Source: a virus. Taken from it: DNA of 37,297 nucleotides. The notes under the pieces are model-generated. The model worked only from the letters and a program-made list of their open reading frames with translations, was not told the origin of the DNA and did no database searches. Location of the stretch: positions 1 to 37,297 of the IMG/VR virus record IMGVR_UViG_3300028414_000728; one strand, written 5' to 3'. The translations under genes and the position numbers were made by a program. Shown piece by piece: positions 18,172-36,756 of the stretch. Numbering within the stretch: position 1 is the first letter of the stretch; each line of letters starts with the position of its first letter.

Positions 18172-18852
18172 ATGTATTTACCTAAATCACAATATAAACT
18201 AACTAAAGTTAAAGACATTCCCAACGTAAAGGATGTAGTTGACCGTCTAGGAAACTTTATTAATTCAAACAAGCAAGTAGTATTAACTTCCTTTGGCACT
18301 ATGTTTGATAAAGCAGGTATTGATTTCGACAAAGGAGATTTTTCTAAAGCACTAGAACTATTTTCAACAGGAACACCAGAAGAAGCTGAATCAAGAGACC
18401 AGCCTGGGTACGAATCTGATAAAGATACCCCAGAATTAAACTCATCAGGAAAAACAGTTTCTTTAAAATTGCCACCGACTACAGCTGACAAAAAGAAGGG
18501 CATAATGCAAAGATGTTTTTACTACAATAAGTGTACTGGAAAAGCATTAGAAATATCAAAAGTACAGCTCAATAATTTATCTATGGACAAGGACCTATGT
18601 ACTGAATTAGCGATAGCAGAATGGTATATTAAAGGTTCCGCTAAAGATAGAACCGTAAATGGGTACTTTTTAGAAGGGCTAGAGACTGTAAATAACAGAA
18701 CTATACAGCAAATTAAAAAAACCATTCCGGTAATAGAGGGGCTGATTAAAAGTCCCCTTGAGTACGTAGAAGATACCTTTATACCATCATCTATAGAATA
18801 TAAATCTCAGATTAAAGATATTATTATACCTTCACCGGGAAAAGAGTTGTAG
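18172..18852 (+). CDS. Unknown protein at end of baseplate cluster
   Basis: 226 residues. It is not recognised. The N-terminal 110 residues are polar with an acidic, Pro/Ser-containing stretch; residues about 115-180 hold CFYYNKCTGK, three further cysteine-containing or hydrophobic helices and AEWYIKG; the C-terminus is Ile/Lys-rich. A CX5C pair near residue 115-121 could be redox or metal related but nothing else supports this. It begins 12 bases after the hub gene and is followed by a promoter, so it closes the structural operon. Confidence 0.55.
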   Translation: MYLPKSQYKLTKVKDIPNVKDVVDRLGNFINSNKQVVLTSFGTMFDKAGIDFDKGDFSKALELFSTGTPEEAESRDQPGYESDKDTPELNSSGKTVSLKLPPTTADKKKGIMQRCFYYNKCTGKALEISKVQLNNLSMDKDLCTELAIAEWYIKGSAKDRTVNGYFLEGLETVNNRTIQQIKKTIPVIEGLIKSPLEYVEDTFIPSSIEYKSQIKDIIIPSPGKEL

Positions 18853-18894: not shown

Positions 18895-20220
18895 GTGTTT
18901 TATATATTAGAATCAAAAGATCAAATCGACCGGTTAGAAAGTCAAACTAATTCCCCTCTATACGTAGATGTAGTTAGTACCAACTTCTATTACCACTCTA
19001 AATTAACTTCCACAGTAGGAGTGTATGTTAGAGTTGTAGGAGATAAGCAAGGGTACTTTGTTCCTATATCTCATGAGGATGGACTTAATGTAGATAAAGA
19101 ACGTATCTACAACATTCTAAATAAAGCACAAACACTTTATACATTAAATAAGAAAACACTTCTCTACTACTTTAATCTACAGAGAGCTATAGATATATCT
19201 TTAGTATATTCTATGAATAATTACAAAAGGTTAGAGTACTCTACTTCAAATACAACTATCGACTGGTACTACCGTACACATAGTGAGAAGAATAACATAA
19301 ATAGAATAATCCCTATAGTCAAACTCTACGAGAGATGTGAGAATATATTTAATCAGATAGAACAACACCTACAACTTCCAATACCAGACGGCTTTGACTT
19401 TTATAATAATACAACCACAAATGTATTTTACCTATTGGAGCAGAACGGTGTAGGAATTGTATACGATGGATTTAATGAATTATTTAAACCTAAAAATCCA
19501 CTTTATAATACAGAAGATAATACTGTTTATACCGAATACAACCTATACAATAGTACCTCCAGGCCGACAAATACTTTTAATTCTGTTAATTTTGCAGCAA
19601 TTCCTAAAACACCCGAACATAGACAGTGTTTTAAACCGCAGAATGACTTCTTTGTAGAATTCGACTTCGACGGGTACCACTTAAGACTATTAGCTGAACA
19701 GTTAGATTACCCCTTAACTAATGAATCTGCTCATAAACAGTTAGCTAAACAGTATTTCGGTAAGCAGGATATATCCGAAGAAGAGTACAATAGAGCAAAA
19801 CAGATTAATTTTCATGCTATATACGGGAAGATACCAGAAGAACATAAAAATCTTAAAATATTTAAAGAAGTACAGGAATATATAGATGCAATGTGGAAGC
19901 TATATATTGAAACAGGGCAAGTACATAACCCACAATCTGGAAAAGCATTTACTAATAAACTCCAGGATATGAACCCAGCTAAGCTAATGAATTATATGAT
20001 GCAATCGTTGGAAACCTCAAATAATATCACTATATTAAAAGATATACTAAAATATCTCAGAGATAAAAAGACATTTATTACGTTATATACCTACGATGCA
20101 ATTTTATTTGACTTTAGTAAAGAAGACGGTAAAGATACTCTCTCAGAGATACAAACAATAATGGAAAAACAAGGGAAATACCCTGTAAAATTTAAATACA
20201 GCACAAATTTAGTGTTATAA
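18895..20220 (+). CDS. Shortened family A DNA polymerase
   Basis: 441 residues, less than half of E. coli Pol I. The C-terminal half carries the family A polymerase motifs: motif A D257-F-D-G-Y-H-L-R264 (D257 equals the catalytic Asp; Glu of ELR replaced by H262), motif B R300-A-K302 through F306 to Y310-G311, and motif C Y400-D401-A402 in place of HDE. The segment SRPTNTFNSVNFAAIP before motif A also fits. The N-terminal 110 residues resemble a 3'-5' exonuclease fold (VDVVSTNFYYHS, then VGVYV) but acidic residues are sparse. T4 itself uses a family B polymerase. The start is GTG at 18895; no ATG lies near. Catalytic aspartates remain, so activity is possible. Confidence 0.75.
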   Translation: MFYILESKDQIDRLESQTNSPLYVDVVSTNFYYHSKLTSTVGVYVRVVGDKQGYFVPISHEDGLNVDKERIYNILNKAQTLYTLNKKTLLYYFNLQRAIDISLVYSMNNYKRLEYSTSNTTIDWYYRTHSEKNNINRIIPIVKLYERCENIFNQIEQHLQLPIPDGFDFYNNTTTNVFYLLEQNGVGIVYDGFNELFKPKNPLYNTEDNTVYTEYNLYNSTSRPTNTFNSVNFAAIPKTPEHRQCFKPQNDFFVEFDFDGYHLRLLAEQLDYPLTNESAHKQLAKQYFGKQDISEEEYNRAKQINFHAIYGKIPEEHKNLKIFKEVQEYIDAMWKLYIETGQVHNPQSGKAFTNKLQDMNPAKLMNYMMQSLETSNNITILKDILKYLRDKKTFITLYTYDAILFDFSKEDGKDTLSEIQTIMEKQGKYPVKFKYSTNLVL

Positions 20221-20240: not shown

Positions 20241-20693
20241 ATGATAACAAATCTAACATTACCACGGTTCGACTACGATATTGAACCTATTTTTACCAGC
20301 GACGATATGAGTAATAAGTTGTTTTGCACCTTTTCTACAGAAGAAGGACTTGAAGAAGTATTAACTTCTATTCAAGAGAGATATAAAATTATATATAATA
20401 AAATATTTGTACTTTATTCTAAAAGTCAAGATGAGTATATGTGTACATATAACGTAGACTTTGGAAATGTAGGAGCTTTTATAGACAATACTATACTAGT
20501 ACATAGAAAAAAAGAAACAAATACCCTATACACAATAAATGCACTTAATACACTAATTAAGGATCTTAATGGAGGTGTATTGGATACAAGTTATAGAATA
20601 AACTGGCCTGATTACCGTAATTGCGTACTACTTACTAAAGGTCCAGAATTAAAGAGAGTTAATACAAAGTTATATAAAATTATTGAGCTTTAG
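20241..20693 (+). CDS. Conserved phage protein of unknown function
   Basis: 150 residues. It shows a beta-rich N-terminal half, YMCTYNVDFGN, NTILVHRKKETNTLYTINAL near the middle, and INWPDYRNCVLLT near the end. I recall proteins with the NTILVHRKK..TNTLYTINALN pattern in marine T4-like phages without assigned function. There is no signal peptide, membrane helix or known catalytic motif. It sits between the polymerase and the ssDNA-binding protein; a small replication or regulatory role (T4 places RegA and clamp genes near here) is possible but not supported by sequence similarity. Confidence 0.6.
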   Translation: MITNLTLPRFDYDIEPIFTSDDMSNKLFCTFSTEEGLEEVLTSIQERYKIIYNKIFVLYSKSQDEYMCTYNVDFGNVGAFIDNTILVHRKKETNTLYTINALNTLIKDLNGGVLDTSYRINWPDYRNCVLLTKGPELKRVNTKLYKIIEL

Positions 20694-20753: not shown

Positions 20754-21557
20754 ATGGATATCAATGCGATCAGAGCGAAACTAGATGCTCTAAACTCTAA
20801 TGGTCAGGAGAGAGAAAAAACAGACTACACTAAAATCTTTTGGAAACCGGAATTAGGTAAACAAACAGTACGTATTGTACCGTCTGCTTCTGACCCAAGC
20901 TTTCCTTTTAAAGAACTTAAGTTTCATTACGGAATTGGTAAATTTCCAATGGTAGCACTTTCCAATTTTGGTAAGCAGGATCCAATTGAGGAGTTTGTTA
21001 AAGAGTTAAGGAAGACAAGCGATAAGGACAACTGGTCATTATCAGGCAAGATCTCACCTAAAACTCGTGTATTTGCACCAGTTATAGTAAGAGGAGAAGA
21101 AGATAAAGGAGTTAGATTATGGGGATTCGGAGTTACAATCTATAAAGCATTACTTGCTTTAGCAGAAGACGAAGATATTGGAGACTTTACCGATGTTATT
21201 AACGGATGGGATATGGTAGTTGAACAACAAAAAGGAAACCCTTACCCTGAGACAACAGTAAGGATTAAACCTAAACAAACACCACTATCAGATAATAATG
21301 AATTAGTTGATACTTGGTTAAAAGATCAACCAAATCCTGTAGAAGTACATACACAGTACGACTACGACTTTATAAAAAAGAAATTACAATTATATTTAGA
21401 TCCTAATGCAGTAGAAGAGACAAACAATACTGAAACTAAAGAAGGAGATAAACTGCCAGAAAGCTTAGGTCAACAGAAAACGGACTTTACTTTGGAAACA
21501 GCTACGGCTGGCAACAAAGACACAGTTAGTAAATTTGATGACTTATTCAACGAGTAA
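20754..21557 (+). CDS. Single-stranded DNA-binding protein (T4 gp32-like)
   Basis: 267 residues (T4 gp32 301). It covers ssDNA in replication and recombination. Seen: FWKPELGKQTVRIVP near residue 29, FKELKFHYGIGK, RVFAPVIVRGEEDKGVRLW and a FGVTIYKALL helix, the OB-fold core of gp32 relatives in marine T4-like phages. The acidic C-terminal tail ends DTVSKFDDLFNE, the protein-recruiting tail expected of ssDNA-binding proteins. The zinc-binding Cys cluster of T4 gp32 is not obvious. It is first in an operon with the recombinase, three bases downstream. Confidence 0.9.
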   Translation: MDINAIRAKLDALNSNGQEREKTDYTKIFWKPELGKQTVRIVPSASDPSFPFKELKFHYGIGKFPMVALSNFGKQDPIEEFVKELRKTSDKDNWSLSGKISPKTRVFAPVIVRGEEDKGVRLWGFGVTIYKALLALAEDEDIGDFTDVINGWDMVVEQQKGNPYPETTVRIKPKQTPLSDNNELVDTWLKDQPNPVEVHTQYDYDFIKKKLQLYLDPNAVEETNNTETKEGDKLPESLGQQKTDFTLETATAGNKDTVSKFDDLFNE

Positions 21558-21559
21558 AT

Positions 21560-22633
21560 ATGGCAAAACAGAGAAAAGAAGTAAAAGCAGCCGCATCAGC
21601 GGCAGTAAAGAAGGGCTTTAATTTAGGTAATTTTAAGAAGAAGAAGGGTTTTTCTAACGCATCTGTAAAGTTTAAAGAGCAAGGATGGATTCCACTATCG
21701 AAGGCATTCCAAGATATAACTTCTCTTCCAGGTATCCCTACAGGGCATATTACCCTATTAAGAGGTCATAGTGATACAGGAAAAACAACTGCTCTACTAG
21801 AAGCTGCAGTAAATGCACAAAAGCAAGGAGTACTTCCAGTATTTATTATTTCAGAGATGAAATGGTCATGGGAACATGCTAAAGAGATGGGACTTGAGTT
21901 TACAGAAGTATTAGATGAAAACGGAAAAGTAACAGATTACGAAGGTTTCTTCCTATATGCGGATAGAGGTACTTTAAATACTATTGAAGAAGTTGCTGTA
22001 CATATGGCTGACTTAATCGATGAGCAAACAAAAGGTAACTTACCTCATGATATGTGCTTCTTCTGGGATTCAATCGGTTCTATCCCTTGCGATCTATCAG
22101 TACGTTCTAATAAGAATAATAATGAATGGAATGCAGGAGCAATGTCAACTCAATTCGGTAATAATCTTAACCAAAAGATATTATTATCTAGGAAAGAGAA
22201 CTCACCTTACACAAATACGCTAGTAGCTATTAATAAGGTATGGACAATGAAACCTGAACACCCAATGGGTCAACCTAAATTACAGAACAAAGGAGGAATG
22301 TCTATGTGGTACGATGCTACGTTGGTTGTAACCTTTGGTAATATTACTAACCCAGGTACCTCTAAAATTAAAGCTGTAAAGAACGGACTTCAAGTGGAAT
22401 TTGCTAAAAGAACTAACATTCAGATAGAGAAAAACCACATTGGGGGAGTACAGTCAAGAGGAAGGGTAGTTATGACCTCTCACGGTTTTATAGAAGACGA
22501 TAAAAAGGCAATTGATAAATATAGAGATGCACATAAAGAGCATTGGCTAAAGCTAGTAGGTAGTATAGATTTCGACTTAATCGAAGAAGGAGACTTAGAA
22601 GAAGAAACTATAACTCCAAATATACTAGATTAA
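21560..22633 (+). CDS. uvsX: UvsX/RecA-type recombinase
   Basis: 357 residues. An ATP-dependent strand-exchange protein working with the gp32-like protein. Walker A GHSDTGKTT at 69-77; FIISEMKW after it; Walker-B-like strand MCFFWDSIGSIP near residue 160-175; loop region with NNNEWNAGAMSTQFG; KNHIGG. near the end of the core. The N-terminus is Lys/Ala-rich and unlike cellular RecA. Length and order (gp32, uvsX, exonuclease, helicase) fit a T4-like replication cluster. Its stop overlaps the next ATG by one base (TAATG). Confidence 0.88.
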   Translation: MAKQRKEVKAAASAAVKKGFNLGNFKKKKGFSNASVKFKEQGWIPLSKAFQDITSLPGIPTGHITLLRGHSDTGKTTALLEAAVNAQKQGVLPVFIISEMKWSWEHAKEMGLEFTEVLDENGKVTDYEGFFLYADRGTLNTIEEVAVHMADLIDEQTKGNLPHDMCFFWDSIGSIPCDLSVRSNKNNNEWNAGAMSTQFGNNLNQKILLSRKENSPYTNTLVAINKVWTMKPEHPMGQPKLQNKGGMSMWYDATLVVTFGNITNPGTSKIKAVKNGLQVEFAKRTNIQIEKNHIGGVQSRGRVVMTSHGFIEDDKKAIDKYRDAHKEHWLKLVGSIDFDLIEEGDLEEETITPNILD

Positions 22634-23667
22634 TGGCTAAATATGATCAATTACTAGACGGCCTAAAAGAACGCCCTCCCAGAGAGTTGAACGATCACAT
22701 CCTTGTGATTGATGCTATGAATATGTTAATTCGTAGCTTTTCATTACTCAAAGCAATGAATCCATCAGGCCATCATATTGGCGGCCTGGTTGGTTTTATG
22801 CGATCACTAGGGTTTGTAACAAGAACCTTTGATCCAACAAGAGTAATAATAGTATGGGACGGTAAAGGAGGGTCAGCAAATAGGAAAAATATAGATCCTA
22901 ATTACAAAGCACAGCGGGCAACATCAAGAATAACCCATTGGGGTTTATATGATTCTAAAGCAGAAGAACAAGAAGCTCTTATAGGACAGTTATTTAGGAC
23001 ACAAGATTACCTTGAATGTCTACCAGTACAGCAAATTAGTATGGAAAAACTAGAAGCTGACGATGTAATAGCATACATAGCAAAAAGAGCATCAGTATCT
23101 AAAGTTAAAAAATGTACTATAGTATCGTCTGATAAGGATTTCTTGCAGTTAGTAGATGATACAGTTGAAGTATATGCTCCTATTAAGAAGAAAGTGTTTA
23201 CTGAAGGTAATATATTCGACGAATTGAAGGTACTACCTGAAAATTATAACGTTGTCAAAGCGTTACTGGGAGATAACTCAGATAATTTAGCAGGCGTTAA
23301 AGGATTAGGGATAAAGACTATAATATCAGAGTTTCCTGAGTTGGTAGATAAACCAAATATGACTTTACAATACGTTTACGATGTATGTGCAGCTAAATTA
23401 GAGGAAAAGAAATTTAAAAAGATCTTCCCTAAGATTATAACGGAATGGGATCGTGTAGAAACTAATTTTAAATTAATGGATTTACATGTGACTTCGTTGG
23501 ATAGTAAGGAAAAAGATCATATATTAGATATAATAAAGAGTGACATTCCCAATCTACAATCAGGGGCATTTCTACATCTTTTAGATCAAGATAAGATCGA
23601 AGGGATTACTAAGAATACTGAAGGTTGGTTAGAGAACTTTAGAGGTTTAACGGTTTTAAAAAAATAA
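22633..23667 (+). CDS. 5'-3' exonuclease (FEN/T4 RNase H-like)
   Basis: 344 residues. Removes RNA primers and flaps during lagging-strand synthesis. Acidic metal-binding residues are present in family order: D27 (VIDAMN), D76 (VWDGKGG), E141/D143/D144 (EADDVIAY), D167/D169 (SSDKDF), and D214/D217 (LLGDNSDN) leading into the helix-hairpin-helix GVKGLGIKT. The size is close to T4 RNase H (305). The gene is translationally coupled to uvsX through TAATG and is followed four bases later by the helicase gene. In a phage with a polymerase lacking a 5' nuclease domain this protein would supply that function. Confidence 0.9.
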   Translation: MAKYDQLLDGLKERPPRELNDHILVIDAMNMLIRSFSLLKAMNPSGHHIGGLVGFMRSLGFVTRTFDPTRVIIVWDGKGGSANRKNIDPNYKAQRATSRITHWGLYDSKAEEQEALIGQLFRTQDYLECLPVQQISMEKLEADDVIAYIAKRASVSKVKKCTIVSSDKDFLQLVDDTVEVYAPIKKKVFTEGNIFDELKVLPENYNVVKALLGDNSDNLAGVKGLGIKTIISEFPELVDKPNMTLQYVYDVCAAKLEEKKFKKIFPKIITEWDRVETNFKLMDLHVTSLDSKEKDHILDIIKSDIPNLQSGAFLHLLDQDKIEGITKNTEGWLENFRGLTVLKK

Positions 23668-23671
23668 GGGT

Positions 23672-25018
23672 ATGACATTAAAAGCATTGAATCAGTATGG
23701 AAAAGGTTTCCAGCTGAAGGTATTGGGCTCATTGCTAACGGATAAAAGCTTCCTTCTAAATGTACGAGATGTACTGCAAGAAGAGTACTTTGACTCAGAC
23801 GCACACAAGTGGATTATAAATCAGTTAGTTAATTACTTTGATAAGTATCATACTACTGTTACTATGGATGTACTTAAGGTTGAATTACAGAAAATCGATA
23901 ACGATATTCTTAAAGTAGCATTAAAAGAAGAGTTACGTAATTCCTACGAAGCATCTCAAGATGATTTAGATTATGTACAGGAAGAATTTACAACTTTCTG
24001 TAAGAATCAAGAAATGAAACAAGCGATTCTTAATTCTACCGATCTATTAAAAGCAGGAGATTTTGATGGTATTAGGAATACTATAGAAACAGCTATGAAA
24101 GCTGGAATGGATAAGAATATTGGACACGAATACAATAAAGATGTAGAATCAAGGTATAGGACAGATTATAGACCTACAATTCCAACTCCTTGGGCACAGC
24201 TAAATGAAGGAATTCAAGGAGGATTCGGTCCTGGAGATTTAGCTATCGTCTTTGGTAACCCGGGTGGAGGTAAAAGTTGGACCTGTGTTGCAATGGCAGC
24301 ACATGCTGTTAAAATGGGATATAAAGTTAACTACTATACTTTAGAATTAGGTGAAGACTATGTAGGAAAACGTTTCGACTGCTACTTTACAGGATACTCT
24401 ATTGACGAGGTTAACAACCACAGAAAAGAAGTGCAGAAAGTAGTAGATAACTTAAAAGGTAAGTTGATAGTTAAAGAATACGCACCAAAAGGAGCTACAG
24501 TCAATACAATTAAGTCCCATATACAAAAGTGTATAGATATGGAACATAAACCAGATTTAGTTGTTATCGATTACGTTGATTACTTGAGAGCACCATCTAA
24601 AGGTAAATTCTCAGAACGTAAAGACGAAATAGATGATGTATTCATCGCTACTAAGGGGTTAGCTAAAGAACTTAAGATACCGGTTATAACACCTTCTCAA
24701 GTAAATAGAATGGGTGCTAAAGATTCGGTCATCGAAGGAGATAAAGCTGCTGGTTCGTATGATAAAATGATGGTAGCAGATATGTGCTTTTCTTTATCCA
24801 GAATGAAAGAAGATAAAGTACTCGGTACCGGTAGGTGGCATGTTATGAAAAATAGATACGGTCAAGACGGTATGACTTATAACCTTAAAATGGATACTAA
24901 TAACGGTCATATCGAATTCGAGGGTAAAGCTGATATAGATGAGCACTTAAATTCCGGCGATGGTCCAACATTTACATTATCCAGAGAAAAAATGTCAGAA
25001 CTTTTTGACAAAAAGTAA
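23672..25018 (+). CDS. Replicative DNA helicase (DnaB / T4 gp41-like)
   Basis: 448 residues (T4 gp41 475). A hexameric 5'-3' helicase at the fork. Residues 1-150 resemble the DnaB N-terminal domain (FQLKVLGSLLTDKSFL). The RecA-like core begins near 175: Walker A GNPGGGKSW at 195-203, a Glu in YYTLELGEDYVGKR, Walker B PDLVVIDYVDYLR, ITPSQVNR and a final RWHVMKNRYG.DGM arginine-finger region. It is the last gene before a strong terminator. No primase gene is visible in the window, so priming must be encoded elsewhere or by the host. Confidence 0.92.
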   Translation: MTLKALNQYGKGFQLKVLGSLLTDKSFLLNVRDVLQEEYFDSDAHKWIINQLVNYFDKYHTTVTMDVLKVELQKIDNDILKVALKEELRNSYEASQDDLDYVQEEFTTFCKNQEMKQAILNSTDLLKAGDFDGIRNTIETAMKAGMDKNIGHEYNKDVESRYRTDYRPTIPTPWAQLNEGIQGGFGPGDLAIVFGNPGGGKSWTCVAMAAHAVKMGYKVNYYTLELGEDYVGKRFDCYFTGYSIDEVNNHRKEVQKVVDNLKGKLIVKEYAPKGATVNTIKSHIQKCIDMEHKPDLVVIDYVDYLRAPSKGKFSERKDEIDDVFIATKGLAKELKIPVITPSQVNRMGAKDSVIEGDKAAGSYDKMMVADMCFSLSRMKEDKVLGTGRWHVMKNRYGQDGMTYNLKMDTNNGHIEFEGKADIDEHLNSGDGPTFTLSREKMSELFDKK

Positions 25019-29428: not shown

Positions 29429-30217
29429 ATGGCACATTGTGTAGTTAGTTTAAGTGGTGGAATGGATAGCAGCACCCTATTGTTAAGAGCTATCGAGGAG
29501 TATGATACAGTAACAGGTATCTCATTTGACTATGGTCAAAAACATAGAGTTGAACTTGAAAGAGCTCAACAATTAATTGATTACCTTGCAACTAAAGGTC
29601 ACAAAGTAAATTATCGTCAAATTAAATTAGATGGATTAGTAGATCTATTAGATTCAGCATTAACTGAAGGCGGTAAAGATGTACCTGAAGGACATTATGA
29701 GCAAGATAATATGAAAGAAACAGTTGTTCCTAATAGAAATAAAATGTTTGCTTCTATTACTCAAGCAGTAGCATTATCTGTAGCAAATAAAACAGAAGGT
29801 GTTTGTGATATTGCTTTAGGTATTCATGCTGGTGACCATGCAGTTTATCCTGATTGTAGACAAGAATTTAGAGATGCAGATGATGCAGCTTTTAGAATGG
29901 GAAATTGGGATGCGGATAGAGTAGGCTACTTTACACCTTATTTAAATACTGATAAATTTGGTATTTTGCAAGATGGAGAAATACTATGCGCTAAATTAAA
30001 AATTGATTTTAATGAAGTATATAAAAGAACAAATACTTCTTATAAGCCTTATCCTTCGGGAAATAGTGATTATAAGTCTGCTTCTAGTGTTGAGAGGATT
30101 GAGGCTTTTATTGCTCTTGGCAGAAAGGATCCCGTACAGTATGAGGATGAAACTGGAGAAGTTGATTACGAGGTAGCAAGAAAACACGTTGAAAACGTTT
30201 TATCTGCATATTTATAA
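29429..30217 (+). CDS. queC: 7-cyano-7-deazaguanine (preQ0) synthase, zinc-less variant
   Basis: 262 residues. Converts 7-carboxy-7-deazaguanine to preQ0 with ATP and ammonia. The PP-loop SGGMDSS is at 9-15; FDYGQKHR at 33-40, VPNRNKMF at 100-107, GIHAGDHAVYPDCR at 131-144 and FTPY at 168-171 are the family's core. Known QueC proteins end with four zinc cysteines (C, then CxxCxxC). Here the matching stretch, residues 201-220 (TNTSY to SASS), has none; serines stand in their place. The remainder VERIEAF is in family register. It has its own promoter-like element and structured leader. The third quarter of the gene uses T-ending codons more than its neighbours. Confidence 0.9.
   Translation: MAHCVVSLSGGMDSSTLLLRAIEEYDTVTGISFDYGQKHRVELERAQQLIDYLATKGHKVNYRQIKLDGLVDLLDSALTEGGKDVPEGHYEQDNMKETVVPNRNKMFASITQAVALSVANKTEGVCDIALGIHAGDHAVYPDCRQEFRDADDAAFRMGNWDADRVGYFTPYLNTDKFGILQDGEILCAKLKIDFNEVYKRTNTSYKPYPSGNSDYKSASSVERIEAFIALGRKDPVQYEDETGEVDYEVARKHVENVLSAYL
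30209..30216 (+). promoter_or_regulatory. TATTTATA late-type element before the lysis genes
   Basis: TATTTATA in the last codons of queC, 29 bases before the ATG at 30246. This is the spacing seen at structural genes, and late control would suit the endolysin-like gene at 30403. No TTG is present at the usual distance. Confidence 0.35.
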
Positions 30218-30245
30218 GCTCATGTTAAATAATTAAAATAAAAAA

Positions 30246-30392
30246 ATGAGTACTACAAGCGATCAACAAAACGGTCAACCACATACTAATGATACCAGAA
30301 ACACTTTTAATAAAAGAGTAAGCAGGTACATTATGTTAGGGAACACTAAAAAAGTACAATGGGACGGTAAAAGAAGGAACCGCTCTATCTAA
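30246..30392 (+). CDS. Very small basic protein before endolysin
   Basis: 48 residues, polar N-terminus (STTSDQQNGQPHTNDTRN) and a basic C-terminus (KKVQWDGKRRNRSI). The start follows an A-rich leader; the stop is 10 bases before the endolysin-like ATG. It has no hydrophobic segment, so it is not a holin. It is not recognised. Support is the tight fit between neighbours and the A/T-rich initiation region. Confidence 0.45.
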   Translation: MSTTSDQQNGQPHTNDTRNTFNKRVSRYIMLGNTKKVQWDGKRRNRSI

Positions 30393-30402
30393 AAAAACAG
30401 TT

Positions 30403-31002
30403 ATGAAAACTAAACTTGACAGTATCTCTAGGTTAATTTTAATTGCTATAATGTTATTTTCTATAATGGCATTTACATCAGTATATAAATTAAAAAGAGG
30501 TACTGTTAAAGTTAATGTACTTAAACCTGAAAAAGTTAAAATAACAACTACTATAGATTCATCTATACTTCCTGAAATAGTTATTAAAGACCACCAATTA
30601 TTCTTAAATGATTTAGGTCATCAAGAATCAGGCAATAGATACAGTGTAGTTAACAGGTACGGATATATGGGAAGATACCAGTTTGGAAAATCTACTTTAA
30701 AAACGCTAAAGATAAGAGCTAGTCGCTCTAAGTTCCTTAAAGATACACTTCTGCAGGAACAAGCTATGTTTGCTCTACTTAAACATAATAAAAAACGATT
30801 GCAAAAACTTATAAATAAGTTTGATGGTAAAGTCGTACATGGAGTACTAGTTACAGAATCAGGACTATTAGCAGCAGCACATTTAGGCGGCCAAGGAAGT
30901 GTTAAAAAGTGGTTTAGATCAGGTAGAGTAAGAAAAGACGGTAATGGAGTACGAATTACAACTTACATGAGAAAATTCGGAGGATATACTTTAAATTTAT
31001 AA
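30403..31002 (+). CDS. Lysozyme/transglycosylase-like endolysin with N-terminal membrane anchor
   Basis: 199 residues. Residues 10-28 form a hydrophobic segment after a short basic start, either an uncleaved signal anchor (SAR-like) or a signal peptide. Residues about 64-199 look like a lysozyme-fold peptidoglycan hydrolase: LNDLGHQESGNRY with probable catalytic E75, YGYMGRYQFGKSTL, LQEQAMFALLKHN and AAAHLGGQGSV near the end, the SLT/lysozyme pattern. It would cut the glycan strands from the periplasmic side at lysis. No obvious holin is adjacent, though small membrane proteins are encoded at 28678 and 31588. The next gene begins one base after its stop. Confidence 0.75.
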   Translation: MKTKLDSISRLILIAIMLFSIMAFTSVYKLKRGTVKVNVLKPEKVKITTTIDSSILPEIVIKDHQLFLNDLGHQESGNRYSVVNRYGYMGRYQFGKSTLKTLKIRASRSKFLKDTLLQEQAMFALLKHNKKRLQKLINKFDGKVVHGVLVTESGLLAAAHLGGQGSVKKWFRSGRVRKDGNGVRITTYMRKFGGYTLNL

Positions 31003-31003
31003 A

Positions 31004-31591
31004 ATGAAAAAAGGGACAAAACACCTTATAATAATAGGACATCCAGATCAAAAGTCATTCTGTTATAACGGCATATACAGAACAATTATTAGACAGATGA
31101 ATAAGTATAAATCAAACTACAAAGTTATAGATTTATATGAAGATAAATTACATAGAGATAAAGTAGATCTGATAAAAAGCTATAAGAAGTTAGTTACTTG
31201 GTCAACACATATCTACTTTGTTTCACCTGTATGGTGGTTTAGGTTGACGCCTAAATTAGAGATGTTTTTTGATGAAGTATTTACACCTGGTTTTGCATAC
31301 AAGTTTGTACCGGTAGTAGGTAAGTACGCTTATCCGAAACCTTTTTTTAGTAAAAAGAAAGTAAGGACATACATTACTCATGGAGCTCCCAAATTACCGG
31401 TAATAACACTATACCTTAACTCAGTTAAATTAAGATTAGTAATGGGAGTATATACATTTGTATTTGGCTGGAATATAAACAGATGGACTAAGACAAAACA
31501 ATTCTGGTCTGTACCGTTTGTATCAAAAGAGAAACGTAAAAAGTATTTGAGAATAGTTAAAGAAGATATTAGAAAAGATCTAGGACTATGA
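31004..31591 (+). CDS. NAD(P)H-quinone-oxidoreductase-like flavoprotein (Flavodoxin_2 type)
   Basis: 195 residues. Begins with a basic start and strand HLIIIGHPDQKSFCYNGI, the phosphate-binding loop of this flavin family; then YFVSPVWWFRLTPKLEMFFDEVFTPGFAY, which matches the hallmark P-x-WW-x-x-P-x-x-x-K/E-x-x-x-D-x-V-x-x-x-G-x-A-Y of NQO/MdaB/KefF-like proteins; THGAPK near the middle. It should bind FMN or FAD and reduce quinones or similar electrophiles using NAD(P)H. Such a gene is unusual in phages. It lies between endolysin and a membrane protein that overlaps its stop by four bases. A link to the preQ0 genes is possible but unsupported. Confidence 0.8.
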   Translation: MKKGTKHLIIIGHPDQKSFCYNGIYRTIIRQMNKYKSNYKVIDLYEDKLHRDKVDLIKSYKKLVTWSTHIYFVSPVWWFRLTPKLEMFFDEVFTPGFAYKFVPVVGKYAYPKPFFSKKKVRTYITHGAPKLPVITLYLNSVKLRLVMGVYTFVFGWNINRWTKTKQFWSVPFVSKEKRKKYLRIVKEDIRKDLGL

Positions 31592-31932
31592 AAAAGTGTA
31601 ACGTATGTAAGCAAGAAAAACCGGGATTCTTATACAAAACCGGAGAAAAACAGACTTGCAGAAAATGTGAGTTTAAGTGGTGGCACTACTACCTAAGGTT
31701 AATGGTAAGGGAACGTAAACTTACTCCTTTAGAAAGACTATCAAGTAGGGTTGGATATATGGGCGCTGGGTTTCTAGTAGCTGGACAATGGACATTGAAT
31801 CCATATCTATTCATAATAGGGTTCTTATGTGTAATGATTCAGACAACAGTCCGTAGACAGTGGAATTTAGTAATACTACAGTTAAACGGATTAGTAGCAT
31901 GGGTAATACATTTAATATACTCTATAAATTAG
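31588..31932 (+). CDS. Zinc-ribbon membrane protein
   Basis: 114 residues. The N-terminus has CNVCKQEK, then CRKCEFKWW: two CxxC pairs 19 residues apart (C4, C7, C24, C27), a treble-clef/zinc-ribbon pattern. Residues about 55-112 form three hydrophobic segments (VGYMGAGFLVAGQW, LFIIGFLCVMI, LNGLVAWVIHLIYSI) with a basic VRRQWN turn between the second and third. The ATG overlaps the flavoprotein stop (ATGA), so the two are coupled and may act together at the membrane. Family unknown to me. Confidence 0.6.
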   Translation: MKKCNVCKQEKPGFLYKTGEKQTCRKCEFKWWHYYLRLMVRERKLTPLERLSSRVGYMGAGFLVAGQWTLNPYLFIIGFLCVMIQTTVRRQWNLVILQLNGLVAWVIHLIYSIN

Positions 31933-31962
31933 TTGCATATTAGAATAAAAAACACTATATTA
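31933..31962 (+). promoter_or_regulatory. Promoter-like element TTG-N20-TATATTA
   Basis: TTG at 31933-31935, directly after the TAG stop, 20 bases, TATATTA at 31956-31962. It would drive the small membrane gene, queD and queE. Confidence 0.6.
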
Positions 31963-32008
31963 TTATAATATAGGTACAGTGTCACAGCACCACTTTAAAA
32001 ACACGAAT

Positions 32009-32248
32009 ATGAATAAATTAGGAAAAAAGGTTATGAATGAACTCTACAATAGAGAAGAAAGAGAGAACTTCGAAGGAATCAAGATCAATGATCATAAGAT
32101 TCCAGATCCAAAATTACATCAACAAATTAGCTTCGCCAAATCAGGTATCCGTATTTTAGGTTATGCTGCATTATGTTATAGTTTAGATATAGCAGTAGGT
32201 TTACTCATATTGAGTGAAGGAATAGGAATTATAGAAGAATTAGTTTAA
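32009..32248 (+). CDS. Small membrane-associated protein before queD
   Basis: 79 residues from the ATG at 32009; an in-frame GTG at 31979 would add ten residues but lies too close to the promoter element to leave a leader. The N-terminal 45 residues are charged (VMNELYNREERENFEG), the rest has hydrophobic stretches (IRILGYAALCYSLDIAVGLLI). It is not recognised. Its stop is nine bases before the queD ATG, so it is part of the queD-queE operon. Confidence 0.5.
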   Translation: MNKLGKKVMNELYNREERENFEGIKINDHKIPDPKLHQQISFAKSGIRILGYAALCYSLDIAVGLLILSEGIGIIEELV

Positions 32249-32257
32249 ATTAAAGTT

Positions 32258-32722
32258 ATGGGAAAATTTCAATCAACAAAAGTATTTGACGGATACTCTA
32301 CTGTATTTCGTCAATGGAAAGCAACAACAACACATTGCTCTAAACTACACGGATACGGAGTATCTTTTAAGATATGGTTTGAAGGGGAGTTAGATGAGAG
32401 AAATTGGGTCTGGGATTTCGGAGGAATGAAAAGAGCTAAAGGAACTATAGAAAAGATGACTCCTAAAGCATGGATGGATTATATGTTTGACCATACCTTT
32501 TTAGTAGCTGAAGACGATCCATTTAAGGAATCTTTTATGCAAATGGATTTAGCTAAAGTAGCTCAAGTACGAGTTATTCCAGCTACCGGAGCAGAGAGCT
32601 TTGCTAAATTTATTTACGATAGTATAAATCCATTTATCGAAGCAGAAACTGACGGAAGAGTTAAGATAACAAAAGTAGAATTTAGAGAACACGCTAAAAA
32701 CAGTGCAATTTATGTCGCATAA
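32258..32722 (+). CDS. queD: 6-carboxy-tetrahydropterin synthase-like, variant metal site
   Basis: 154 residues. Second step of the preQ0 route: converts dihydroneopterin triphosphate to 6-carboxy-tetrahydropterin. Family features: C27-SKL-H31-GYG (Cys nucleophile and first HGH histidine), VWDFGGMKR, FDHTFL with D78-H79, and PATGAESFA with E113. Two of the three zinc histidines of cellular QueD are not there: the early His is F17 (VFRQW) and the second His of HGH is Y33. H26 next to C27 might substitute. I recall the FRQW...HC..LHGY form in other marine phages, so it may be a phage subfamily. queE overlaps its end by 11 bases. Confidence 0.85.
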   Translation: MGKFQSTKVFDGYSTVFRQWKATTTHCSKLHGYGVSFKIWFEGELDERNWVWDFGGMKRAKGTIEKMTPKAWMDYMFDHTFLVAEDDPFKESFMQMDLAKVAQVRVIPATGAESFAKFIYDSINPFIEAETDGRVKITKVEFREHAKNSAIYVA

Positions 32723-33500
32723 ACAATTAAAAAGAATAGAAGACTACGATAAAAATTTACCTATCGTAGAAATATATACAGCAGTACAGTCAGAAGGATC
32801 AAGAGCTGGTTATCCAACAGTAGTGATTAGAACTACAGGATGTACACATAGATGTTACTTTGGAGAAGGAGGATGGTGTGATAGCTGGTATACAAGTATA
32901 CATCCAGAAAAAGGACACTTTAATTTTAAAGACATTATTAAAGCATATGAAGATAATCCTCATATAAAAGAAATGATGCTAACCGGTGGATCACCAACAA
33001 TGCATCCTGCTCTAGTAAACGAATTAACACACTTTGCACATGAAAACAATATATTCATTACTATTGAAACTGAGGGATCTCATTTTCTACCTACCGATTA
33101 TCCTATTAATTTGCTTAGCATTAGTCCTAAGTTTAGTAATAGTGTCCCCGTTGTTGGTGTTGAAACTCCTCAAGGATCCATTACCGACGAAAGAATGGTA
33201 AAAAGACATAATAAGTTTAGACTTAATTATGATGCTATATCTAAATCAATATCATACCATTCAGATTACCATATTAAGCCAGTATGGGACGGTAAGGATA
33301 AAGGTTCATTAGAAGAAATTCTTAATTTTATTAAGATTATGGATGTACCTCAAGAGAAAGTATGGTTTATGCCAGCTGGAGATTCTAGAGAAGGGTTATT
33401 TAAATCCTACCCATTAGTATTCGATTGGGTAAGAGATAACGGTTACAGAATGACTTGGAGACCGCACATTATTGCATTCGAAGATCAACGTGAAGTATAG
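32712..33500 (+). CDS. queE: 7-carboxy-7-deazaguanine synthase-like radical SAM enzyme
   Basis: 262 residues from ATG 32712; an in-frame GTG at 32703 is possible but less likely. Third step: SAM-dependent ring contraction to 7-carboxy-7-deazaguanine. Seen: IVEIYTAVQSEGSRAG.P.V.IR, the QueE N-terminus with substrate-binding QSEG; cluster cysteines C44, C48 and C56 as CTHRC...GGWCDSW, that is CX3CX7C instead of the common CX3CX2C; LTGGSPTMHP, where GGEP is usual; and SPKFSNS later. The start lies inside the end of queD, so both are translated together. A stretch near 33110-33180 uses GTT and other T-ending codons unlike its surroundings. Confidence 0.88.
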   Translation: MSHKQLKRIEDYDKNLPIVEIYTAVQSEGSRAGYPTVVIRTTGCTHRCYFGEGGWCDSWYTSIHPEKGHFNFKDIIKAYEDNPHIKEMMLTGGSPTMHPALVNELTHFAHENNIFITIETEGSHFLPTDYPINLLSISPKFSNSVPVVGVETPQGSITDERMVKRHNKFRLNYDAISKSISYHSDYHIKPVWDGKDKGSLEEILNFIKIMDVPQEKVWFMPAGDSREGLFKSYPLVFDWVRDNGYRMTWRPHIIAFEDQREV

Positions 33501-33634
33501 TGAATCAAGAAGAAGCATTAGAAATATTAGAAACAATAGCAGAAAACATTAATACATGTTGCGCAATTACTATGGAACCAGATGATGTTTTGGTTTTATG
33601 TGATAAATTAAAAAAATACTTAGAGAATGGTTAA
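33500..33634 (+). CDS. Small protein between queE and 33627 gene
   Basis: 44 residues from a GTG that overlaps the last base of the queE stop (TAGTG). Acidic helix (NQEEALEILETIAENIN), then TCCAIT, PDDVLVLCDKLKKYLENG. The stop overlaps the next ATG region (ATGGTTAA), so the reading frame is locked between two coupled genes. It is not recognised; likely a small helical protein. Confidence 0.5.
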   Translation: MNQEEALEILETIAENINTCCAITMEPDDVLVLCDKLKKYLENG

Positions 33635-33926
33635 TTTAAAAGAATTAATAGAATCAGCAGGTCCAGGTAGACTAGATCATACGGTTACTATAGAAGGAAG
33701 CCCAGTTTGGGATTATAAAATGGGGGACGTACACACTGTATTCCTTATATCAGAAGACCCTTGGGATGGGGTAGAAGAAGAGTACGTAACTTTAAGAGAG
33801 TTGAGAAAGTATATAATTGAAAGCTTTATACCTTTCGATTCAGTAAAGTTTAAAACAGAAGCAGATCAAGAAACAATAAAAAGTTATAAATGGGAAGAAG
33901 AACAATTAGTATTGTCGCATTACTAA
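33627..33926 (+). CDS. Unknown protein
   Basis: 99 residues, acidic. MVNLKELIESAGPGRLDHTV then EGSPVWDYKMGDVHTVFLIS and a helical second half with EEEYVTLRELRKYI. It has no membrane segment or known motif. Both ends overlap neighbours: eight bases with the 44-residue gene upstream and 37 bases with the nuclease gene downstream, which suggests a coupled operon. Function unknown. Confidence 0.55.
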   Translation: MVNLKELIESAGPGRLDHTVTIEGSPVWDYKMGDVHTVFLISEDPWDGVEEEYVTLRELRKYIIESFIPFDSVKFKTEADQETIKSYKWEEEQLVLSHY

Positions 33927-34471
33927 TAATAGTACCTTTTATCGGGGTTAGTCAAGTAATAGAAGTTGAAACAAAGATTTATAAAGTACTATATGATCAA
34001 GATTTAAAACAACCTCTTGAAGTTAGTTATACAGTACAGTGCCCTAAAGGGGATGCTGATAGAGCAGGTATGGACTTTAGAACAGTTCCTAATATAGTAA
34101 CATCTACAGCAGAAGACTATTCAAACAACATATGGGACAAAGGTCATCTAGCACCTGCAGCAGCATTTAGCTGTACTAAGGAGATGTTAAGAGAAACATT
34201 TATGTATTTCAATTGTGTTCTTCAACATGAAAGCTTGAATAGAGGGGTATGGAATAGATTAGAACAGTTCGAAAGAAGTTTAGCTAATTTCTATCAAGTT
34301 GAAGTAACAATAGAAGTATTGTTTGACGATAAAGTAAGAAGGGTGCCAACAGGAGCAGCAATACCTAAAGAATTTATCAAGACAATAAAATTCGGTGATA
34401 AGAACTTAAAATTTAGATTCCCTAACACCAACACATCAGGAACAAATTGGATTGATTACTTAATAGAATAG
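33890..34471 (+). CDS. Secreted DNA/RNA non-specific endonuclease (NUC type)
   Basis: 193 residues. N-terminal signal peptide: basic GRR, hydrophobic core SIVALLIIVPFIGV, likely cleavage near residue 20-22. The domain has D83-K-G-H86-LAPAAAF, the DRGH catalytic motif of Serratia-type nucleases with H86 as base, then N108 and QHESLNRGVWNRLE, in which N117 would bind the metal. The family cuts DNA and RNA with Mg2+. Export implies action in the periplasm or outside. It starts inside the upstream gene (37-base overlap). It might destroy incoming foreign DNA or recycle nucleotides; phage DNA could be protected by its modified guanine. Confidence 0.8.
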   Translation: MGRRTISIVALLIIVPFIGVSQVIEVETKIYKVLYDQDLKQPLEVSYTVQCPKGDADRAGMDFRTVPNIVTSTAEDYSNNIWDKGHLAPAAAFSCTKEMLRETFMYFNCVLQHESLNRGVWNRLEQFERSLANFYQVEVTIEVLFDDKVRRVPTGAAIPKEFIKTIKFGDKNLKFRFPNTNTSGTNWIDYLIE

Positions 34472-34473
34472 AA

Positions 34474-34644
34474 ATGACAGAGAAAGAATTTATTGACTGG
34501 ATAAGAGGATATGTGGACGGAGTACATACGTATTCAGTATCACCAAAGCAGTGGCAGTTCTTAAAAGATAAAGTTAAGAGCATTTCCGGAACAACAACTA
34601 GGTACACTATTGATAGTGAAAAATGGACAACTAACGTATCATAA
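34474..34644 (+). CDS. Small conserved-type phage protein
   Basis: 56 residues: TEKEFIDWIRGYVDGV, then PKQWQFLKDKVKSI. Short proteins with the pattern EF..WL.GY.D, followed by L...Q...LK.KL, are frequent in phage genomes without known function. It starts two bases after the nuclease stop and ends two bases before the phosphoribosyltransferase ATG, so it fits the operon. Confidence 0.55.
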   Translation: MTEKEFIDWIRGYVDGVHTYSVSPKQWQFLKDKVKSISGTTTRYTIDSEKWTTNVS

Positions 34645-34646
34645 TT

Positions 34647-35051
34647 ATGGAAACAAAGAAAATCTTTATAACCTGGGATGAGGTTAACGAACTATTAGAT
34701 AAAGTATACGATAAATGTAAAGGAAAGGTAAGCTTAGTTACAGGTGTACCTAGAGGAGGTACGATATTAGCAATAATGTTTTCACATAGGTTTGACATAC
34801 AGTACATGCCCTATATGAGTAACCACTACCCTAATATGCTTATAATAGATGATATAGCAGATACAGGAAAAACATTTAAGGAATTAGAAAAAGACTTGGA
34901 TACTCCTAAGTATGCAGCACTACATTATAAAAATACTTCGGTATTCAAACCCGACTACTATGCAGAGGAAATAGACGATGATTTTGGATGGATAGTGTAC
35001 CCTTGGGAGAAAAAAGATTCAAATACTATTCAAAATTATTTGGAGAATTAA
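34647..35051 (+). CDS. Purine-type phosphoribosyltransferase
   Basis: 134 residues. Type I phosphoribosyltransferase: VTGVPRGGTILAIMFSHRF near 31-49, PRPP-binding motif MLIIDDIADTGKTF at 64-77, and a WIVYPWEK end typical of xanthine/guanine phosphoribosyltransferases. It transfers ribose phosphate from PRPP to a purine base. It is somewhat shorter than E. coli Gpt (152). It stands directly before folE, whose substrate is GTP, so guanine salvage for the preQ0 route is a plausible role (inference). Substrate cannot be read from the sequence. Confidence 0.78.
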   Translation: METKKIFITWDEVNELLDKVYDKCKGKVSLVTGVPRGGTILAIMFSHRFDIQYMPYMSNHYPNMLIIDDIADTGKTFKELEKDLDTPKYAALHYKNTSVFKPDYYAEEIDDDFGWIVYPWEKKDSNTIQNYLEN

Positions 35052-35069
35052 AATAAATTACTTATATTA
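35040..35069 (+). promoter_or_regulatory. Promoter-like element TTG-N20-TATATTA before folE
   Basis: TTG at 35040-35042, within the last codons of the upstream gene, 20 bases, TATATTA at 35063-35069. The folE ATG at 35081 is only 11 bases downstream, so the transcript would have a very short leader. Confidence 0.55.
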
Positions 35070-35080
35070 TTATTATATTA

Positions 35081-35830
35081 ATGAGTCGTAGAACCTCAAA
35101 AAAACAATTAAAATTTATGCCTAAAAAGTTTATAGACGGAACAGAATTAGTAAAAGCAGGATATGCAAATGGTATATCAAGTCAATTAGCTGCAAAGCAA
35201 GAATTAGAAGGACCTGAAGCTAGGTTAACTGAACATGAAAAGAAAGTAATTATAGAAAGAGCAGCAAAAGCTTATGCAGATTTTTTAACCGCTCTAGGCT
35301 GTGACTATAAAGAAGATCCTAACTCATCAGATACTCCATTTAGAGTAGCTAAAGCTTACGTAAACGACCTATGGGCAGGAAGGTATAATCCTTTAGACAG
35401 AATTACAGCATTCCCATCAGATGGATACGATGGTATTGTACAGGAAAGTAATATACCTGTAACCTCTATGTGTTCACACCACCATCAAGCCATTAGCGGT
35501 ACAGTCAGTATTGCCTATATAGCCTCAGAAGACGGTAAAGTAGTAGGGTTATCTAAGTTAAATAGAATAGTAGAGCAATTCGGTAGAAGAGGAGCTATAC
35601 AGGAACAGTTAACTGTAGCTATTCATAATGCTGTAGATAAGATATGTGAAGGAAATCTAGGAGTAGCAGTACAGATTAATGCAACTCATGCTTGTGTATC
35701 ATGTAGAGGAGTTAAACATAGAGGAGCATCTATGCAAACAGCGAAATTAACAGGAGCATTTCTTAACGAAGACTCAGCAAAAGCAGAGTTCTATAAAAAT
35801 ATAGAATTAGCAAGTATTTGTAAACATTAA
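35081..35830 (+). CDS. folE: GTP cyclohydrolase I
   Basis: 249 residues (E. coli 222). First step of the preQ0 route: GTP to dihydroneopterin triphosphate. Zinc ligands in family positions: C131 and H134 (SMCSHHHQ) and C205 (THACVSCRG). Also GLSKLNRIVEQFGRR, the conserved GLSK..R motif at 157-170, and QEQLT. The first 50 residues are a basic extension not needed for catalysis. Pterin for folate is an alternative use, but queD, queE and queC nearby favour 7-deazaguanine synthesis. It has its own promoter-like element. Confidence 0.95.
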   Translation: MSRRTSKKQLKFMPKKFIDGTELVKAGYANGISSQLAAKQELEGPEARLTEHEKKVIIERAAKAYADFLTALGCDYKEDPNSSDTPFRVAKAYVNDLWAGRYNPLDRITAFPSDGYDGIVQESNIPVTSMCSHHHQAISGTVSIAYIASEDGKVVGLSKLNRIVEQFGRRGAIQEQLTVAIHNAVDKICEGNLGVAVQINATHACVSCRGVKHRGASMQTAKLTGAFLNEDSAKAEFYKNIELASICKH

Positions 35831-35845
35831 TAAATAAATTAAATT

Positions 35846-36049
35846 ATGACAAACTATTGGCAAGTTACTACTCAATTCGAAAGAGAAAACGATAGAGGAA
35901 GAGTACAGAAAGTAAAAGAAATATACCTAGTAGATGCAATGACAGGAACAGAAGCAGAAGCTAAAACATATAAGATGCTAGAAGAGTTAAGTGAAACGAA
36001 CTTTAAGATTATTAGCCTTGCAGAATCAAGAATTATAAAAGTATACTAA
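35846..36049 (+). CDS. DUF4494-like small protein
   Basis: 67 residues: NYWQVTTQFERENDRGRVQKV then KEIYLVDAMTGTEAEAK and a FKIISLAESRIIKVY end. This follows the DUF4494 pattern (W.....Y, K.V.E.YLVDA...TEAEA, F.V), a small family I know mainly from Bacteroidota and their phages. No function is assigned to it. It lies 15 bases after folE and two bases before the MazG-like gene. It is useful as a host hint. Confidence 0.65.
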   Translation: MTNYWQVTTQFERENDRGRVQKVKEIYLVDAMTGTEAEAKTYKMLEELSETNFKIISLAESRIIKVY

Positions 36050-36050
36050 A

Positions 36051-36578
36051 ATGAAAGGAAAGCAATTAACATTATTCCCTATATTAGATGCTATGTCTGA
36101 AAAAGACTATGTACCTTTTGTTAGCGAAGTAGAAACATTTAATACTACTTTTGGAAAACCGAACAACTATGGACCAACAATCCCAGAAAAAAAAGAATGG
36201 CAATTCGTTTACGACTTTATACTCGAAGAATTGGAGGAATATAGACAAGCTTGCGAAAACGGAGACATCGTGGAAGTTTTGGATGCTTTGTGCGATATTA
36301 CTTATGTGTCCCTTGGGAACGGTGTTATGCTACACGGCCTTAAGGATCAGATATGGCCAGCGTATCAAGAGGTACAAGACAGTAATATGTCAAAATCTTG
36401 CACTACTGAGGAAGAAGCCTTACAGACTGTCACCTTACGAGCTAAAGAACAGGGTGAGCCGTGTCATTATGAAAAGGTTAATAGTAGATACGTCGTTTAT
36501 AGATCTAGGGACAAAAAAGTAATGAAGTCTATCAACTACTTTAGACCGAACCTAAAAAAGTTGTTTAATGCCAATTAA
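36051..36578 (+). CDS. MazG-like nucleotide pyrophosphohydrolase
   Basis: 175 residues. All-alpha NTP pyrophosphohydrolase pattern: FILEELEEYRQA with E59, E60 and E63, then VEVLDALCDITYV with D78 and D82, and GLKDQIWPAYQEV, which resembles phage MazG/PRA-PH-like proteins. It would hydrolyse NTPs or dNTPs to monophosphates, or alter (p)ppGpp, roles proposed for phage MazG. The residues after 110 (NMSKSCTTEEEALQTV) are a phage-type extension. The end overlaps the next ATG by 11 bases. In this region it might remove unwanted nucleotides before DNA synthesis; this is inference. Confidence 0.75.
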   Translation: MKGKQLTLFPILDAMSEKDYVPFVSEVETFNTTFGKPNNYGPTIPEKKEWQFVYDFILEELEEYRQACENGDIVEVLDALCDITYVSLGNGVMLHGLKDQIWPAYQEVQDSNMSKSCTTEEEALQTVTLRAKEQGEPCHYEKVNSRYVVYRSRDKKVMKSINYFRPNLKKLFNAN

Positions 36579-36756
36579 GTTAGAGGATCATATAATATAT
36601 GTAGATAGCCATAAAATGGATATGGTTCCTCTATCTATAGCAATTAAAGCAGTTAAAGAAGCAAGTACTCCAGAAGTAGAAAAGTATGCAGAGGAGTTTG
36701 AAAAAGCAATGGCAGAATTACGTAACTCAATAAACGATATAAAATTAGATGATTAA
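36568..36756 (+). CDS. Small acidic helical protein before dpdA
   Basis: 62 residues: PIKLEDHIIYVDSHKMDMVPLS then a charged helix (PEVEKYAEEFEKAMAELRNS). It is not recognised. It starts inside the MazG-like gene and overlaps the dpdA-like ATG by eight bases (ATGATTAA), so it is translated as part of the same operon. Confidence 0.5.
   Translation: MPIKLEDHIIYVDSHKMDMVPLSIAIKAVKEASTPEVEKYAEEFEKAMAELRNSINDIKLDD

What the first reader, a model, noticed from the sequence alone, without database searches (positions are those of the whole stretch)
18895..20220. Half-size family A DNA polymerase with altered motifs in a T4-like genome
T4-like phages normally carry a family B polymerase. Here a 441-residue family A protein lies next to gp32, uvsX, exonuclease and helicase. 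Catalytic aspartates D257 and D401 and K302 are present, but motif A has His for Glu (H262), motif B lacks the leading Arg and has H307 for Gly, and motif C is YDA not HDE. The N-terminal exonuclease-like part is degenerate. It may be the true replicase, split in two genes, or a specialised polymerase, perhaps linked to modified bases.
Basis: partly seen in the sequence, partly recalled or inferred. Interest (0 to 1): 0.55.

Follow-up and report, generated by a model that had tools for sequence, protein, structure and literature searches.

The report
Compact helper DNA polymerase in phages
This phage gene makes a compact, proofreading-dead relative of bacterial DNA polymerase I that probably patches gaps during replication beside a separate full-size copying enzyme; the family was described in 2024, so it is a further member rather than something new.

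Summary
The 441-aa ORF is real. AlphaFold2 (pLDDT 90.8) gives a shrunken Klenow-type fold, best match bacterial Pol I, Z 27.2. It is not the only polymerase. A contig 99.99-100% identical to the window over 21.2 kb runs on and carries a 769-aa proofreading family A polymerase 3.4 kb past the window's end. All 11 immuto-like records of 59 kb or more carry both. Distant relatives carry a family B polymerase instead but keep the small one. The small gene sits in a fixed operon with gp32, UvsX, a 5'-nuclease and a helicase. Yutin et al. 2024 (PMC11348598, sections 13-14 read) already named this family divPolA1. Most likely role, inferred: Pol I-like gap filling with the separate 5'-nuclease. Not discussed in the text I read: the Glu-to-His change at the sugar gate is invariant. 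The modified-base link is not supported.

The parts
18895..20220 (+). Small family A DNA polymerase (divPolA1 type), 441 aa
18895..19248 (+). Exonuclease-like N-terminal part (about residues 1-118), motifs degenerate
   Evidence: Secondary structure of the model; position 27 never Glu in 68 sequences. The boundary is inferred
19561..19563 (+). R223, aligned with Klenow R668 (primer minor-groove contact, numbering recalled); invariant in 42 aligned
19663..19686 (+). Motif A, D257-FDGY-H262-L-R264: catalytic Asp kept, Glu of the sugar gate replaced by His in 73 of 73
19786..19827 (+). Motif B (O helix) Y298 to G311: K302, F306, Y310 kept; leading Arg replaced by Tyr; H307 in place of Gly
20092..20100 (+). 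Motif C Y400-D401-A402: catalytic Asp kept, second carboxylate absent
18172..18852 (+). Upstream 226-aa ORF, conserved next to the polymerase (103 of 104 loci with room); function unknown, possibly structural (inference)
   Evidence: no Pfam match at E 0.1
20241..20693 (+). 150-aa protein conserved downstream (131 of 131 loci with room); unknown fold family, possible partner
20754..21557 (+). gp32-like single-strand DNA-binding protein
   Evidence: PF08804 42.6 bits; 98 of 98 loci with room
21560..22633 (+). UvsX-like recombinase
   Evidence: phrog_97 E 1.7e-16; 77 of 77 loci with room
22633..23667 (+). 5'-3' exonuclease (FEN-type, the nuclease domain that bacterial Pol I carries fused)
   Evidence: PF02739 113.7 bits; 72 of 72 loci with room
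23672..25018 (+). DnaB-like replicative helicase
   Evidence: phrog_19 E 1.1e-75; 62 of 62 loci with room

Best explanation
The gene encodes a compact, exonuclease-dead DNA polymerase I-type enzyme of the divPolA1 family. It works as the phage's second polymerase. The main replicase is a separate full-size enzyme: a proofreading family A polymerase in this group, family B in distant relatives. I think the small enzyme does short-patch synthesis: it fills gaps left when the FEN-type 5'-nuclease of the same operon removes RNA primers, and extends ends in recombination intermediates coated by gp32 and UvsX. In effect it would be a bacterial Pol I split into a nuclease gene and a polymerase gene. 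Shown: homology and predicted fold, conserved catalytic residues, second polymerase, fixed operon. Inferred: that it polymerises, and which step it serves.
For: Catalytic Asp pair, O-helix Lys, Phe, Tyr and Gly, and the minor-groove trio R223/N366/Q370 are invariant. dN/dS is 0.04-0.09 in 9 informative pairs. The model matches bacterial Pol I large fragments over nearly the whole chain (6vdd Z 27.2, 407 of 441 aligned). A separate proofreading PolA lies beyond the window; such large enzymes keep a DTE exo motif, the motif A Glu and the O-helix Arg (15 aligned) and co-occur in 11 of 11 immuto-like records of 59 kb or more. Six of six long distant-group records carry PolB instead, none a relative of the large PolA, and keep the small enzyme. 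The FEN gene lies in the same operon in 72 of 72 loci with room. A DnaG-like primase is present in all 6 records of 150 kb or more, so primers to be removed are expected.
Against: No activity is shown here or in the papers read. T4 itself removes primers with a FEN-type RNase H and fills gaps with its replicase, so the operon does not require a second polymerase (recalled). No ATP-type DNA ligase was found over the cut-off in 13 records, so phage-encoded completion of lagging-strand joining is not evident. The operon is equally that of recombination. Loss of the O-helix Arg and the short thumb predict weak activity. Yutin et al. note that the small gene, not the large, has the conserved replication context.
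Confidence: 0.5

Rival explanations
1. It is a lesion-bypass or D-loop-extension polymerase for recombination-dependent replication, analogous in role to Pol theta or nu, not a primer-gap filler.
For: No proofreading motif, short thumb helices, conserved next to gp32 and UvsX. Foldseek also lists Pol theta and Pol nu among the matches, though all family A enzymes match.
Against: The protein is shorter than Pol theta or nu domains and shows no obvious inserts of their kind (inference from length). No damage-response genes were tested.
Confidence: 0.25
2. It is the fork replicase, and the large polymerase has another job.
For: The small gene has the strictly conserved replication operon and persists where the other polymerase is exchanged; Yutin et al. 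call the function of the regular polymerases less obvious.
Against: It lacks the Exo I motif, while the large enzyme has the exonuclease domain PF01612 and a nearly full PF00476 match. Phages of about 160 kb would copy without proofreading.
Confidence: 0.1
3. It is a catalytically dead family A protein kept as a scaffold or clamp-like factor.
For: Three motif changes (H262, Y298, A402) and degenerate exonuclease.
Against: Both catalytic Asp, Lys, Tyr and the DNA-contact residues are invariant. Phage Tt72 polymerase with Ser at the A402 position is active, and its E-to-A mutant at the H262 position keeps 35%.
Confidence: 0.1

Closest known systems
divPolA1 (Yutin et al. 2024, PMC11348598)
   Same: Immuto phage member is 57% identical over the full length; second polymerase beside a regular family A, B or C one; replication-gene context; palm catalytic residues kept; thumb truncated; exonuclease inactivated (section 13 read).
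   Different: Nothing excludes membership. Additional here: invariance of the His at the sugar gate, and many more members. The paper says all three exonuclease aspartates are replaced; here an Asp remains at position 25, without its Glu partner.
Bacterial DNA polymerase I, large (Klenow) fragment
   Same: Same predicted fold over nearly the whole chain; profile match E 3.3e-7.
   Different: About 160 residues shorter; E710, R754, G763 and E883 equivalents changed; 5'-nuclease encoded by a separate gene.
Large PolA of the same phages (immuto gp199)
   Same: Family A, same genome.
   Different: About 770-800 aa, proofreading domain, canonical motif A Glu and O-helix Arg, motif C HDQ, Leu at the F762 position.
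divPolA2 of barbaviruses (same paper)
   Same: Second divergent family A enzyme beside a regular one.
   Different: No homologous thumb, unrelated N-terminal domain, variable gene context (not compared here by sequence).
Phage Tt72 polymerase (PMC9324360)
   Same: Motif C lacks the second carboxylate yet the enzyme is active (passages).
   Different: Has strong proofreading and keeps the motif A Glu.

Membership tests
divPolA1 | Homology to the immuto gp001 protein | tested here: met
   57.1% identity over 100% of the query to MW353175-7 and NC_055915.1; the paper lists MW353175-7
divPolA1 | A second, regular DNA polymerase in the genome | tested here: met
   769-aa PolA on contig G002, 99.99-100% identical to the window over 21.2 kb; in the window itself it lies beyond the end
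divPolA1 | Conserved downstream replication genes | tested here: met
   gp32, UvsX, FEN, helicase in order
divPolA1 | Catalytic palm residues kept | tested here: met
   D257 and D401 in 73 of 73
divPolA1 | Inactivated 3'-5' exonuclease | tested here: inconclusive
   Exo I by sequence only: position 27 never Glu, position 25 Asp in 44 of 68; no PF01612 match at E up to 1. Exo II and III were not aligned and activity was not assayed
divPolA1 | Truncated thumb | tested here: inconclusive
   Only short helices at 141-160 and 167-181 in the model; not superposed residue by residue
Family A DNA polymerase | Pfam DNA_pol_A above cut-off | tested here: met
   38.8 bits against 34.3
Family A DNA polymerase | DNA synthesis activity | not testable with these tools
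   Needs purified protein
Replicative proofreading phage PolA | Recognisable 3'-5' exonuclease domain PF01612 | tested here: not met
   No PF01612 match at E up to 1; the large enzyme scores 52.4 bits
T4-type family B replicase | PF00136 match | tested here: not met
   None in the window record

The most novel reading that the evidence does not exclude
The invariant Glu-to-His change at the sugar gate, with loss of the O-helix Arg and of the motif C carboxylate, marks a polymerase with altered sugar choice: it may add ribonucleotides or mixed tracts, for example to start or mark synthesis at UvsX D-loops, so that divPolA1 would be a step from DNA polymerase toward the single-subunit RNA polymerases.
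Probability: 0.12. Interest if true: 0.75.

Novelty: new member of a known kind. Interest (0 to 1): 0.36.

Why it matters
A polymerase that stays in the replication operon while the main replicase is exchanged between families is a good handle on what replication needs besides a replicase. The invariant His at the sugar gate gives a simple test of sugar selection in a natural family A enzyme. The family is widespread and is named, but in the papers found it has no biochemistry.

Tried and rejected
Replicase split in two genes: rejected. One chain covers the whole Klenow-like fold, and the neighbours 18172-18852 and 20241-20693 showed no polymerase match.

Family B polymerase in the same genome group: none in the window record or in the 11 long immuto-like records.

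Family C: PF07733 was found only in the 484-kb record W02 among 25.

Primase role: disfavoured, since a DnaG-like primase is in 6 of 6 records of 150 kb or more, 6 of 13 overall. The Pfam model PF08275 was too weak a probe (2 of 13 at E 0.001).

Modified-base link: QueC (phrog_1550) is in 7 of 15 records. It is absent from G045 (162 kb), G046 (157 kb), W02 and W03, all of which carry the small polymerase, and from 4 shorter distant-group contigs, where absence says little.

DNA ligase PF01068: 0 of 13 over the cut-off, 1 of 13 at E 9.6e-4. NAD-type ligase was not searched.

Fold of the 150-aa neighbour: no Foldseek match at E 0.001. Aligner Z is at most 6.8, on part of the chain; rows over most of the chain are polyomavirus T-antigen origin-binding domains at Z about 6, below the level I trust.

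Literature searches: immuto, two polymerases, E710 steric gate, Crassvirales, Mel-JY01 (no paper), DpdA, divPolA1 (two records: the paper and its preprint), His steric gate; apart from PMC11348598, PMC8775771 and PMC9324360 only the listings were seen. PMC8775771 was seen in passages only. In these searches I found no paper that discusses the His.

Full report
Observation. The ORF at 18895-20220 (+) encodes 441 aa and passes the Pfam cut-off for DNA_pol_A (38.8 against 34.3 bits). Position 402 is Ala in 53 and Ser in 20, never Glu. Among 42 aligned sequences R223, N366 and Q370, which align with Klenow residues that touch the primer minor groove (recalled), are also invariant. Of 11 gene pairs compared, 9 gave dN/dS of 0.04-0.09, one gave 0.24 from almost no differences, and one pair was identical.

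Structure. AlphaFold2 on the 42-sequence alignment gives mean pLDDT 90.8 and pTM 0.89. Foldseek lists only family A polymerases among the 50 best rows (apicoplast polymerase 1.4e-18, Klenow 4.8e-18). The DALI-like aligner gives M. smegmatis Pol I Z 27.2, rmsd 4.0, 407 aligned, and Bacillus fragment entries at Z about 26-27. So the chain is one complete but shrunken Klenow-type enzyme, not half of a split one. The exonuclease-like part lacks its first motif: the partner of the Exo I Asp is never Glu, and the Asp is present in 44 of the 68 sequences that reach it.

A second polymerase. The window is a 37,297-base fragment. Contig G002 matches it at 100% over 7,947 bases and 99.986% over 14,256 bases, together window 16095-37297, and runs about 12 kb past the right end. 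There it encodes a 769-aa protein with the 3'-5' exonuclease domain (52.4 bits) and a nearly full DNA_pol_A match (197.9 bits). By the alignment it would lie at window-equivalent 40741-43050 on the + strand, 3.4 kb beyond the end. The complete Flavobacterium phage immuto genome (NC_055915.1) likewise has gp001 (441 aa) and gp199 (777 aa), both annotated DNA polymerase family A. Over all records searched, the large enzyme was found in 12 of 47 and 8 of 17 (not counting the probable cellular Pol I genes of two bacterial bins, G051 and G052); most of the rest are short contigs or the distant group. In immuto-like records of 59 kb or more it is 11 of 11 (G001, G020, G026, G028, G034, W01, G045-G049). 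Fifteen large enzymes aligned all have the motif A Glu, the O-helix Arg and motif C HDQ, and a DTE motif in the first 120 residues of the open frame.

Exchange of the main polymerase. In the distant group (30-37% identity; L061-L072), in Microcystis phage Mel-JY01 and in the 484-kb record LR756508.1, the large family A enzyme has no relative. Six of six such records of 54 kb or more (G038, G040, G042, G044, W02, W03) carry a family B match; none of the 19 other records in that search does. W02 also has a family C match. The small enzyme is kept throughout. The Pfam model misses the small enzyme in Mel-JY01, which tblastn finds.

Operon. In 146 loci scanned with iterated profiles, wherever the contig is long enough, the 150-aa protein, gp32, UvsX, FEN and helicase are found downstream: 131 of 131, 98 of 98, 77 of 77, 72 of 72 and 62 of 62. 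An upstream ORF is found in 103 of 104. In the 20 loci whose positions were printed the order is the same as in the window, with extra genes between in the distant group. The distant matches are strong for most of these (for example the 150-aa protein in Mel-JY01 at E 1.7e-46, FEN at 2.3e-125) and weaker for UvsX (3.4e-15 in LR756508.1). Loci were not dereplicated, so the counts overstate independence.

Abundance. Four loci lie in cellular genome bins, probably phage contigs binned with them (inference).

Prior knowledge. Yutin et al. 2024 (PMC11348598; sections 13 and 14 read in full, plus the abstract and passages) describe exactly this family as divPolA1 in 14 phages, including immuto, with a regular polymerase of family A, B or C besides, conserved replication context, kept palm residues, truncated thumb and inactivated exonuclease. 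They conclude that polymerase activity is likely kept. The finding is therefore a further member of a described kind. What I add: the window's assignment, the location of its partner polymerase, invariance of the sugar-gate His over 73 sequences, the conserved 150-aa neighbour, and the scale of the family. Their structure-guided alignment figure may show the His; figures are not held, and the text read does not discuss it.

Mechanism. The missing motif C carboxylate is compatible with activity: Tt72 polymerase has Ser there, its S616A variant keeps 76%, and E389A at the sugar gate keeps 35%, while the two Asp mutants fall to 4% (PMC9324360 passages). Bacterial Pol I joins a 5'-nuclease to a polymerase to remove primers and fill gaps (established knowledge). 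Here the same two functions are nearby genes of one operon, and a primase that makes primers is present in all six records of 150 kb or more. I therefore favour Pol I-like patch synthesis, at 0.5, with lesion or D-loop synthesis next. Against it: no ATP-type ligase was found, T4 manages without a second polymerase (recalled), and no activity is demonstrated.

Modified bases. The window has FolE, QueD, QueE and QueC, and the extension has QueF and a protein matching phrog_19058 at the place where immuto has the gene annotated DpdA. But the pathway marker QueC is absent from G045, G046, W02 and W03, which have the small polymerase, so the polymerase is not tied to it.

Verdict. Real, conserved, already described; role inferred. 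The sugar-gate His is the part most worth testing.

Noticed in passing
window 20241-20693: A 150-aa protein of unknown family is conserved between the small polymerase and gp32 (131 of 131 loci with room), with invariant HRKK and N/Y/N/LN residues. AlphaFold2 pLDDT 83.9; only weak resemblance to a T-antigen origin-binding domain. A possible polymerase or ssDNA partner.
   Followed up: partly
window 29429-37297 and G002 extension (L129): 7-deazaguanine DNA modification set: QueC, QueD, QueE, FolE in the window; QueF and a 266-aa protein (phrog_19058, PHROGs 'unknown function') placed like immuto's annotated DpdA, the latter running across the window's right end.
   Followed up: partly
L131 and L133 (contig G001, 167,696 bases): The two ends carry large-polymerase copies 86.8% identical over 2.5 kb, suggesting a near-complete genome closed with a strain variant.
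   Followed up: no
large PolA loci (e.g. L079, L083, L210): All 15 large enzymes aligned have Leu at the Klenow F762 position and motif C HDQ in place of HDE.
   Followed up: no
LR756508.1 260623-266900: The family B polymerase of this 484-kb record matches Pfam in two open frames (1022 and 625 aa) several kb apart: a split or interrupted gene.
   Followed up: no
PP395634.1 55792-56832 and 50397-51623: In Mel-JY01 the 5'-nuclease is annotated 'DNA polymerase I' and the small family A polymerase 'hypothetical protein'.
   Followed up: yes
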